Shown here in pieces: positions 60,120-62,068 of a stretch of 64,000 nt of DNA. The stretch spans positions 124,001 to 188,000 of the forward strand of contig JBBFKQ010000002.1 of NCBI GenBank assembly GCA_037481935.1, written 5' to 3'. The position numbers were made by a program, and so were the translations under genes. Position 1 is the stretch's first letter. Each line of letters begins with the position of its first letter. Source of the stretch: Aquificaceae bacterium. Lineage in GTDB: Bacteria > Aquificota > Aquificia > Aquificales > Aquificaceae. A model generated the notes under the pieces. It saw only the letters and a list, made by a program, of their open reading frames with translations, was not told the DNA's origin and ran no database searches.

Positions 60120-60667
60120 AGGTTAGGTTTGTGGGTAGTTTTGTGAAAGGCTTTCCCATGGACGACCTCATGCATGTGGTATTTGTGGGCAGGTCAAACG
60201 TGGGAAAGTCATCCCTCATAAACATGCTGGTGGGGAAAGATGTAGCACGGGTAAGCAAAGAGCCCGGCAGAACAAGAGCCATAAACCTTTTTCTCCTTGA
60301 AGACCACGGTCTTTATCTTGCTGACCTTCCGGGCTATGGCTTCGCAAAAGTTTCAAAAAAGGTAAGGGAAGAGTGGAAAAGAATGATAGAGGGATACTTT
60401 CATGCCTGCTGGGAAGACATAAAGCTTGTCCTTTTGCTCATTGACAGCCTTGTGGGTCCTACAGAGCTGGACATTGAGAGCCTTAACTGGCTTCAGAGCC
60501 TGAATCTTCCCCACATAATAGCCCTGACAAAATGTGATAGAGCGAGCCAGAGAGAACTCAGTTCAACGCTCAAAAAGATAAGGGAATTTTCCCACGCAGA
60601 GGTAGTGCCCACTTCTGCAAAAGAGGGTATGGGCAAGAAGGAGCTTCTTAAATATGTTCTCAGCTAA
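60116..60667 (+). CDS. engB: Ribosome biogenesis GTPase EngB/YsxC
   Basis: 183 residues. G1 is GRSNVGKSSLIN, G2 a Thr in PGRTRAINLF, G3 DLPGYGFAKVS, G4 TKCD and G5 PTSAKEG. The circularly ordinary G domain without extra domains and the PGRTR segment are typical of EngB, which acts in 50S assembly. It overlaps folC (4 nt) and lipA (14 nt). Confidence 0.95.
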   Translation: MKVRFVGSFVKGFPMDDLMHVVFVGRSNVGKSSLINMLVGKDVARVSKEPGRTRAINLFLLEDHGLYLADLPGYGFAKVSKKVREEWKRMIEGYFHACWEDIKLVLLLIDSLVGPTELDIESLNWLQSLNLPHIIALTKCDRASQRELSSTLKKIREFSHAEVVPTSAKEGMGKKELLKYVLS

Positions 60668-61478
60668 GGCACCTCAGATGGAACTGGTTGGAAAAACCCT
60701 GTGTATACTGAAAAAGTATTCTCTCAACACCGTCTGTGAGGAATCCCTCTGTCCAAACATTGGAGAGTGCTTTTCCAAAGGGACAGCTACCTTCCTGATA
60801 ATGGGCATGGTATGCACAAGAGCCTGCAAATACTGTCATGTATCCAGCGGAAGACCACAGCCACCAGACCCCTCAGAACCAGTCAGGTTATACCATGCAG
60901 TTAAAGAGCTTGGGCTCAGGCACGTGGTGATAACCTCCGTGGACAGGGACGACCTTCCAGACTTTGGTGCGGGGCACTTCAGGAGATGCGTGGAGTTTCT
61001 AAAGTCAAGAGACAGCAGTCTAAGGGTTGAGGTGCTAACTCCAGACTTTCAGGGTTCTGAGAAAGTCCTTGAGGAAATCATAAAGGCAAAGCCCCACATA
61101 CTTTCCCATAACATAGAAACGGTGGAGAGAATCTTTAGAGAGGTGAGACCTCAGGGTGATTACAGGAGGAGCCTCAGGGTTCTCAGGTTCTATTCCGAGA
61201 GCGGAGTCGCTCCTGTAAAGTCTGGCATAATGCTTGGTCTTGGTGAAAGGTGGGAGGAGATAATAAAAACCATGGGGGACCTTAAAAGCGCTGGTGTGTC
61301 CTCTCTTGTGATTGGGCAGTATCTAAGACCAAGCCCAAAACACTACCCCGTCAAAAAATTCTACTCTGACGAGGAGTTCAAAAAACTTGAGGAGATAGCA
61401 CTGGAAATGGGCTTTGAAAAGGTTCTTTCAAAGCCTCTAGCGAGGTCTTCTTATCACGCAGAAGAGCTTGCACTCTAA
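60654..61478 (+). CDS. lipA: Lipoyl synthase
   Basis: 274 residues, slightly short for LipA. The auxiliary cluster cysteines are C28, C33 and C39 (CEESLCPNIGEC). The radical-SAM cluster is C54, C58 and C61 (CTRACKYC). The conserved C-terminal ARSSY provides the Ser ligand to the auxiliary cluster. HVVITSVDRDDLPDFGAGHF and GLGERWEEIIKTM are family segments. It inserts two sulfurs into octanoyl groups. Downstream, after 2 nt, lies a CRISPR-repeat-like 29-mer. Confidence 0.95.
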   Translation: MFSAKAPQMELVGKTLCILKKYSLNTVCEESLCPNIGECFSKGTATFLIMGMVCTRACKYCHVSSGRPQPPDPSEPVRLYHAVKELGLRHVVITSVDRDDLPDFGAGHFRRCVEFLKSRDSSLRVEVLTPDFQGSEKVLEEIIKAKPHILSHNIETVERIFREVRPQGDYRRSLRVLRFYSESGVAPVKSGIMLGLGERWEEIIKTMGDLKSAGVSSLVIGQYLRPSPKHYPVKKFYSDEEFKKLEEIALEMGFEKVLSKPLARSSYHAEELAL

Positions 61479-61480
61479 AT

Positions 61481-61509
61481 CTTTCAATCCCACATTTGGC
61501 GGCTAAAAC
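61481..61509 (-). other. Solitary CRISPR-repeat-like sequence
   Basis: On the minus strand these 29 nt begin GTTTTAGCCGCC and end GTGGGATTGAAAG. The length, the GTTTT start and the ATTGAAAG end match the layout of type I-B/III CRISPR repeats, whose last 8 nt form the crRNA 5' tag. No second full repeat is found within the 230-nt gap, and no cas gene is in the window. A partial echo (GTTTT, then AAATG) occurs at 61512-61533. It may be an orphan repeat, a regulatory mini-CRISPR or coincidence. Confidence 0.4.
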
Positions 61510-61552
61510 CCGTCGTGGCATTTCGCCGAAAACTCTTCAGCAACAATTACTA

Positions 61553-61675
61553 TAATAGCATAGGGGTGCCATCAAAAGCAAGCAAATTTTCTCCAAGTGG
61601 CGGTAGTGCATTTTTTCTTTCCTGTCCTCAGGAAGGTGGGGATTTTTACCGCCACGCTCAGGATTATGCTATAAT
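61553..61675 (+). promoter_or_regulatory. rplT upstream region: two -10 candidates and a long inverted repeat
   Basis: A TATAAT-like hexamer lies near 61551-61556 and another at 61670-61675. Between them GTGGCGGTA (61597-61605) is perfectly complementary to TACCGCCAC (61647-61655). The 41-nt interior holds a smaller hairpin, TTCCT (61619-61623) with AGGAA (61630-61634). RNA started at the upstream site would carry this structure before rplT; RNA started at the second would not. Confidence 0.5.
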
Positions 61676-61708: not shown

Positions 61709-62068
61709 ATGCGTGCAAAGGGTCCTTCTTCAAGGAAGTTCAAGAAGAAGATACTGAAGCTGGCAAAGGGTTTTAGAGGTCAGCGTAAGAATGTATACAG
61801 AAGGGCGAAGGAGTATGTTTTCAGGGCTTTACAGTATCAGTATAGAGACAGAAGGCAGAGAAAGAGGCAGTTCAGAAGGCTCTGGATTGCCCGTATTAAT
61901 GCTGCGGTCAGAGCCCATGGACTTTCCTACGGCAAGTTTATGAACGGACTTTCAAGGGCTGGCATAAACCTCAACAGGAAAATGCTTGCAGAGATGGCAG
62001 TTAGAGACCCTGAAGGTTTTTCTAAAGTGGTAAGCAGGGCGAAAGAAGCTCTGGCACAGACTGCATGA
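61709..62068 (+). CDS. rplT: 50S ribosomal protein L20
   Basis: 119 residues, highly basic. [86 protein letters not shown] follows the L20 consensus throughout. AGGAGG precedes the ATG. infC and rpmI, its usual upstream neighbours, are absent. A structured 230-nt region lies upstream instead. It overlaps pheS by ATGA. Confidence 0.97.

What the first reader, a model, noticed from the sequence alone, without database searches (positions are those of the whole stretch)
61481..61509. Orphan CRISPR-repeat-like 29-mer just after lipA
On the minus strand the element starts GTTTT and ends ATTGAAAG, the layout of type I-B/III repeats with their 8-nt crRNA tag. It stands alone between lipA and rplT, outside any array. 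If transcribed leftwards, the adjoining 'spacer' would be antisense to the 3' end of lipA. Single repeats of this kind are known as array remnants and as regulatory or toxin-guarding mini-CRISPRs. A partial echo of the repeat lies at 61512-61533.
Basis: partly seen in the sequence, partly recalled or inferred. Interest (0 to 1): 0.7.

Follow-up and report, generated by a model that had tools for sequence, protein, structure and literature searches.

The report
Collapsed CRISPR array, leader still attached
The lone 29-base repeat next to lipA is a genuine CRISPR repeat, the last one left, with its leader still in place, of an immune-memory array that related bacteria still carry at this same spot; this genome has lost the array's other repeats and the matching cas genes, an outcome that is already known.

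Summary
The 29-mer at 61481-61509 (minus) is an undecayed CRISPR repeat. It is identical to all 46 repeats of an array on a public contig. It is three substitutions from the repeats of 25- and 4-repeat arrays lying between lipA and rplT in sister species G036 and G037. What survives in the window is that array's leader end: leader 61510-61612 plus one repeat. The leader keeps a 26-nt motif unchanged (26/26, against 43% identity at four-fold sites), the 77-nt motif-to-repeat distance and ACGG at the junction. The motif occurs only in this genus (7 of 64 family genomes, 13 sites). The cognate type I-B cas operon is gone: on contig C10 an about 80-aa cas6 stub runs into one repeat, a 37-nt spacer and a degenerate repeat, where G036 has a full I-B locus between the same neighbours. 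The genome keeps another I-B and a III-B system, with another repeat and leader. Leader-plus-single-repeat loci recur in three more species without Cas1 hits. Best explanation: recent collapse of the array after, or together with, loss of its cas genes. No RNA evidence was available.

The parts
61481..61509 (-). Single CRISPR repeat GTTTTAGCCGCCAAATGTGGGATTGAAAG (8-nt tag ATTGAAAG at 61488-61481)
   Evidence: Identical to 46/46 repeats of an array on JANXCE010000054.1; 1 mismatch to the repeat at the cas6 stub on own contig C10; 2-3 mismatches to arrays of congeners
61510..61612 (-). CRISPR leader of the lost array (103 nt, motif end to repeat)
   Evidence: 76/103 identical to the leader of the G036 lipA array and 76/100 to the leader of the G036 cas-adjacent array; whole-unit blastn E = 3e-26
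61587..61612 (-). Conserved leader motif AATGCACTACCGCCACTTGGAGAAAA
   Evidence: 26/26 identical to the G036 and G037 lipA-array leaders although four-fold sites in lipA are only 43% identical; 13 sites in 7 of 64 family genomes, all in this genus, none in reversed controls; motif-to-repeat distance 77 nt, as at the other resolvable sites
61510..61513 (-). ACGG at the leader-repeat junction, the place where new spacers would be inserted
   Evidence: Preserved in every aligned leader but one, which has ATGG; role inferred
61552..61581 (-). Candidate leader promoter TTGCTT - 18 nt - TATTAT, reading through the repeat into antisense lipA
   Evidence: Same hexamers at the same spacing by eye in the G036 lipA and cas leaders; does not reach the threshold of the generic scan; transcription not shown
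60654..61478 (+). lipA (radical SAM); its stop codon lies 2 nt from the repeat
   Evidence: its C-terminal codons and the trailer found in G036/G037 differ here
61709..62068 (+). rplT (ribosomal protein L20), the other boundary of the array site
   Evidence: the lipA-rplT gap is 34-35 nt in G040, G041, G043, G045

Best explanation
The 29-mer is the sole surviving repeat of a type I-B CRISPR array that lay between lipA and rplT in the common ancestor of this genome and G036/G037/G038. In this lineage the array collapsed to leader plus one repeat, most likely by recombination or replication slippage between repeats, together with loss of the trailer beside lipA. The cognate cas operon was lost by a deletion running from inside cas6 into the cas-adjacent array on contig C10. 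Shown: the repeat's identity, the leader, the shared position with living arrays, and the cas6-stub junction where G036 has the operon. Inferred: the mechanism and timing of collapse, and that it is recent. If the leader promoter still fires, its only product would be a short RNA antisense to the lipA 3' end; no function is needed to explain it.
For: Repeat identical to a living 46-repeat array and of the same family as congener arrays. Arrays at the same place and orientation in G036 (25 repeats) and G037 (4), with a leader and partial repeat beside rplT in G038. Leader homologous to that of the G036 lipA array and of its cas-adjacent array. Array-bearing species form one clade with this genome at its base (local support 0.978 and 0.972), while outgroup congeners have a 34-35 nt gap. 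The C10 cas6 stub (Cas6b E = 1e-9) runs into repeat, 37-nt spacer and degenerate repeat, between def and the glycine-transporter gene as in G036, where cas6-cas8b-cas11b-cas7-cas5-cas3-cas4-cas1 and a 17-repeat array lie between. No I-B cas7 of this kind in this genome. Leader-plus-single-repeat loci also in G041, G042 and G043, which give no Cas1 hit. Collapse to a single repeat, and loss of spacers with cas decay, are described (PMC7056967, PMC8047081, PMC2886076).
Against: A clean repeat-repeat recombination should leave the ancestral trailer beside lipA; here it is missing, so a further deletion, or one deletion ending in the array, must be assumed. The repeat variant differs from that of G036/G037 at three bases, so the ancestral array is inferred from position and leader, not from shared spacers. 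No reads were available to exclude a mis-joined array in this 26-contig assembly.
Confidence: 0.86

Rival explanations
1. It is an ungrown seed: a leader-plus-one-repeat unit landed between lipA and rplT in the clade ancestor; it grew into arrays in G036/G037 and never grew here. The unit would be a naive docking site for spacers.
For: Leader-plus-single-repeat units recur at G041:C82, G043:C55 and G042:C66, with two repeats at G042:C188, and near-identical leaders occur at several places in G042. Solitary leader-adjacent repeats can take up spacers in the laboratory (PMC8047081). The trailer of G036/G037 is absent here.
Against: Cognate cas1/cas2/cas4 are lost with the C10 locus, and the remaining I-B arrays use an unrelated leader and repeat. 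A 46-repeat array with the identical repeat exists elsewhere. The single-repeat units occur in genomes without Cas1 hits, which points to decay rather than seeding.
Confidence: 0.07
2. It is a domesticated regulatory element (CreA-like or scaRNA-like): the leader promoter makes a crRNA-like RNA that controls lipA or another gene through the remaining Cas proteins.
For: Leader motif, junction and repeat are undecayed; candidate promoter hexamers are kept; the genome still encodes two Cas6 proteins, an I-B Cascade and a III-B complex.
Against: Known ectopic regulatory repeats are degenerate and usually two (PMC9458426); this one is single and exact. The remaining systems use a different repeat, GTTGCTAATCTACCGTGTGGAGTTGAAAC. 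The 'spacer' is the lipA end itself. No toxin-like ORF beside it. The folds of the repeat and of the predicted RNA are no better than shuffles.
Confidence: 0.04
3. Assembly artefact: the array is really longer and was collapsed by the assembler at the 29-bp repeat.
For: The genome is in 26 contigs and one live array lies near the end of contig C3. The identical repeat makes a 46-repeat array on a separate public contig.
Against: A 29-bp repeat is shorter than the k-mers normally used for the final assembly, so joining lipA directly to the leader would need reads spanning both (general knowledge). The C10 junction independently shows loss of the cognate cas operon, so a shrunken array is expected.
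Confidence: 0.03

Closest known systems
Collapsed CRISPR array (single repeat left after loss of all spacers), as described for type I-F in Legionella pneumophila (PMC7056967) and reviewed in PMC8047081
   Same: Leader plus one intact repeat where relatives have an array; no spacers
   Different: Type I-B in a thermophilic Aquificaceae genome; the trailer is lost too; the cognate cas operon is deleted, so refilling by its own machinery is not possible
cas-less orphan arrays and leaders in Escherichia/Salmonella (PMC2886076)
   Same: Leaders outlive the cas genes; spacers dwindle after cas loss
   Different: Here the array is down to one repeat, and a cas6 stub marks a deletion junction at the cas locus
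CreTA / CreA ectopic repeats guarding type I systems (PMC8501985, PMC9458426)
   Same: Repeat outside an array in a bacterium with a type I-B system
   Different: CreA repeats are degenerate, usually flank a short spacer-like stretch matching the toxin promoter, and lie by a toxin gene; none of that is present
Solitary repeat units in viruses (Racr RNA anti-CRISPRs, PMC10651486)
   Same: One CRISPR-type repeat on its own
   Different: Here it lies among housekeeping genes with a full host leader; the repeat pattern was not found in viral contigs

Membership tests
Collapsed/orphan CRISPR array | Repeat identical or nearly so to repeats of a bona fide array | tested here: met
   46/46 identical in L124; congener arrays
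Collapsed/orphan CRISPR array | Leader on the expected side at the expected distance | tested here: met
   Leader homology E = 3e-26; 77-nt motif-to-repeat spacing
Collapsed/orphan CRISPR array | Array at the orthologous position in relatives | tested here: met
   G036 and G037 between lipA and rplT; leader and partial repeat beside rplT in G038
Collapsed/orphan CRISPR array | Cognate cas genes absent (orphan) | tested here: met
   cas6 stub junction on C10; no cas7 of this kind; the Cas1 genes present belong to other systems
Collapsed/orphan CRISPR array | Trailer retained next to the remaining repeat (signature of first-to-last repeat recombination) | tested here: not met
   Trailer of G036/G037 absent; repeat abuts lipA. 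This bears on the route of loss, not on the origin
CreTA antitoxin (CreA) | One or two degenerate repeats with a spacer-like stretch matching a toxin promoter | tested here: not met
   One exact repeat, 'spacer' is lipA, no second repeat
CreTA antitoxin (CreA) | Toxin gene or RNA next to it, repressed by the cognate Cascade | tested here: not met
   No toxin-like ORF between lipA and rplT; cognate cas7 not found. A small toxin RNA was not specifically searched for
Viral solitary repeat (Racr) | Lies in a phage or prophage | tested here: not met
   Flanked by lipA, rplT and a pheS-like gene; no match in viral contigs
crRNA-producing locus | Transcription and Cas6 processing at the tag | not testable with these tools
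   No RNA data; candidate promoter only

The most novel reading that the evidence does not exclude
Leader-plus-one-repeat units are a stable form in this genus, kept as ready spacer-docking sites or as small RNA sources after the cas genes are gone: the unit is undecayed here, and similar units stand alone at three other sites in G041, G042 and G043.
Probability: 0.08. Interest if true: 0.6.

Novelty: new member of a known kind. Interest (0 to 1): 0.33.

Why it matters
It gives a natural example of how a CRISPR-Cas system disappears. Within one small clade one can see a full I-B system with two arrays (G036), an array of four repeats with no cognate cas6 or cas7 found (G037), and leader plus one repeat with a cas6 stub (this genome). 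It also delivers a clear leader motif for type I-B arrays of this Aquificaceae genus, usable to find eroded loci that repeat-based array finders cannot call because they need at least two repeats.

Tried and rejected
Partial echo at 61512-61533: scores no better than chance. rplT leader fold: relatives without the array have only 34-35 nt there, and Rfam finds nothing at the site. Repeat or predicted RNA with unusual folding: no. Generic promoter scan: nothing at threshold. Viral origin: no match to the repeat pattern in viral contigs, and no match for the C10 spacer. Use by the remaining systems: their arrays have an unrelated leader and repeat. The Caldimicrobium-labelled MAG with the identical repeat has no convincing cas6 of this kind (best E = 7e-4, 26% identity), and its array contig has low coverage, so it may be an Aquificaceae contaminant; left open.

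Full report
Observation. The 29 bases at 61481-61509 read, on the minus strand, GTTTTAGCCGCCAAATGTGGGATTGAAAG and start 2 nt after the lipA stop. The window holds no other copy at up to 3 mismatches and none is expected. The whole genome (1.69 Mb, 26 contigs) holds one more, with one mismatch, at C10:39517-39545.

It is a real CRISPR repeat. In the same family, 5 of 64 genomes match at up to 3 mismatches, all in the window's genus: this one and four with arrays at about 66-nt period (G036 41 matches, G037 4, G042 8, G044 4). In the public genome collection, a 3,058-bp contig of a MAG labelled Caldimicrobium sp. SKYB6 is an array of 46 repeats, all identical to the window's 29-mer. The window's repeat is therefore an intact copy of a living variant, not a decayed one.

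It sits where relatives have an array. In G036 lipA ends at about 667.19 kb and an array of 25 repeats (one degenerate) follows, read towards lipA; in G037 an array of 4 repeats lies in the same place. In G038 a contig begins with a partial repeat and the same leader next to rplT. G040, G041, G043 and G045 have only 34-35 nt between lipA and rplT; G046 has a different 2.3-kb insert. A lipA+rplT protein tree puts this genome as sister to G036/G037/G038 (supports 0.978 and 0.972). One gain of the array in that clade, followed by collapse here, is the simplest history.

The leader is still there. Bases 61510-61612 align without a net gap to the leader of the G036 lipA array (76/103) and also to that of its cas-adjacent array (76/100). 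A 26-nt motif (61587-61612) is 26/26 identical to the G036 and G037 lipA leaders, whereas four-fold sites of lipA are 43% and of rplT 46% identical between this genome and G036. If sites changed independently at the four-fold rate, 26/26 would have a chance of about 3e-10 (own arithmetic, 0.43^26). Across 64 family genomes the motif occurs 13 times in 7 genomes, all in this genus, and never in the reversed control. The distance from motif to repeat is 77 nt (78 once), and ACGG precedes the repeat in all aligned leaders but one. A candidate promoter TTGCTT-18-TATTAT recurs in the G036 leaders but is below the threshold of the generic scan. This constraint must have acted until recently; whether it still acts cannot be told.

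The cognate system is gone. G036 carries cas6-cas8b-cas11b-cas7-cas5-cas3-cas4-cas1 (I-B by PADLOC models) and a leader with 17 repeats, between def (deformylase) and a glycine-transporter gene. A cas2-like frame lies before the leader (by eye). In this genome the same neighbours enclose only the first about 80 codons of cas6 (71% identical to G036; Cas6b E = 1e-9), running straight into a repeat, a 37-nt spacer and a degenerate terminal repeat. A deletion from within cas6 to near the array's end explains this. No cas7 of this kind remains. Two other systems persist: a complete I-B on C3 and a III-B on C16, each with its own cas6 and cas1. The arrays on C1, C3 and C4 have 13-16 repeats of GTTGCTAATCTACCGTGTGGAGTTGAAAC and an unrelated leader.

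How it most likely came about. Recombination or slippage between repeats can remove all spacers and leave one repeat (PMC7056967; PMC8047081), and leaders outlive cas genes while spacers dwindle (PMC2886076). The genus shows the same trend: leader plus a single repeat of a related type at G041:C82, G042:C66 and G043:C55, and two repeats at G042:C188, in genomes that give no Cas1 hit; note that these are draft genomes. One detail does not fit a simple first-to-last recombination: the trailer seen in G036/G037 between lipA and the last repeat is missing here, so a deletion must also have trimmed the lipA side.

Alternatives. A naive seed unit, a domesticated regulator and an assembly collapse are treated under rivals; none is excluded outright, each is less likely. 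The toxin-guard reading fails its tests: one exact repeat, no second repeat, no toxin-like ORF, cognate Cascade cas7 not found. The echo is chance-level. No RNA data exist here, so transcription from the leader into antisense lipA is only possible, not shown.

Verdict. Ordinary in kind and well explained: a collapsed type I-B CRISPR array reduced to leader plus one repeat, in a genome that deleted the matching cas operon. New member of a known kind; interest moderate to low.

Noticed in passing
L121:2738-2766 (JANXCE010000013.1, about 300 bp from the contig end): An exact single copy of the window's 29-mer lies inside what looks by eye like a disrupted transposase gene in the Caldimicrobium-labelled MAG SKYB6; the upstream 180 bases do not look like the leader. 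Origin unexplained.
   Followed up: partly
L149:1287-1511 and L151:1770-2018: In G043:C55 and G041:C82 the leader-plus-single-repeat unit adjoins a 74-83 aa ORF (67% identical between them; hydrophobic N-terminus and coiled coil, no Pfam family over its cut-off), with other CRISPR repeats or a partial repeat on its far side. A mobile or guarded cassette is possible.
   Followed up: partly
L004:9241-9640 (G000:C10): cas6 stub fused to repeat, 37-nt spacer and degenerate repeat: the scar of the lost I-B operon.
   Followed up: yes
L078:610-2890 (G046): A 2.3-kb insert with a 531-aa ORF of no clear Pfam family and a 153-aa ORF sits in the same lipA-rplT gap, so the site may be a recurrent insertion point.
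   Followed up: partly
window 61619-61642: Terminator-like hairpin with T-run on the + strand between the leader and the rplT start; may end the lipA transcript.
   Followed up: no
L066, L067, L069, L146-L151: The same leader motif serves two different repeat types in this genus (GTTTTAGCTGCCAATTGTGGGATTGAAAG and GTTTTAATCCCACTGTGTGGGGTTGCGAC).
   Followed up: partly
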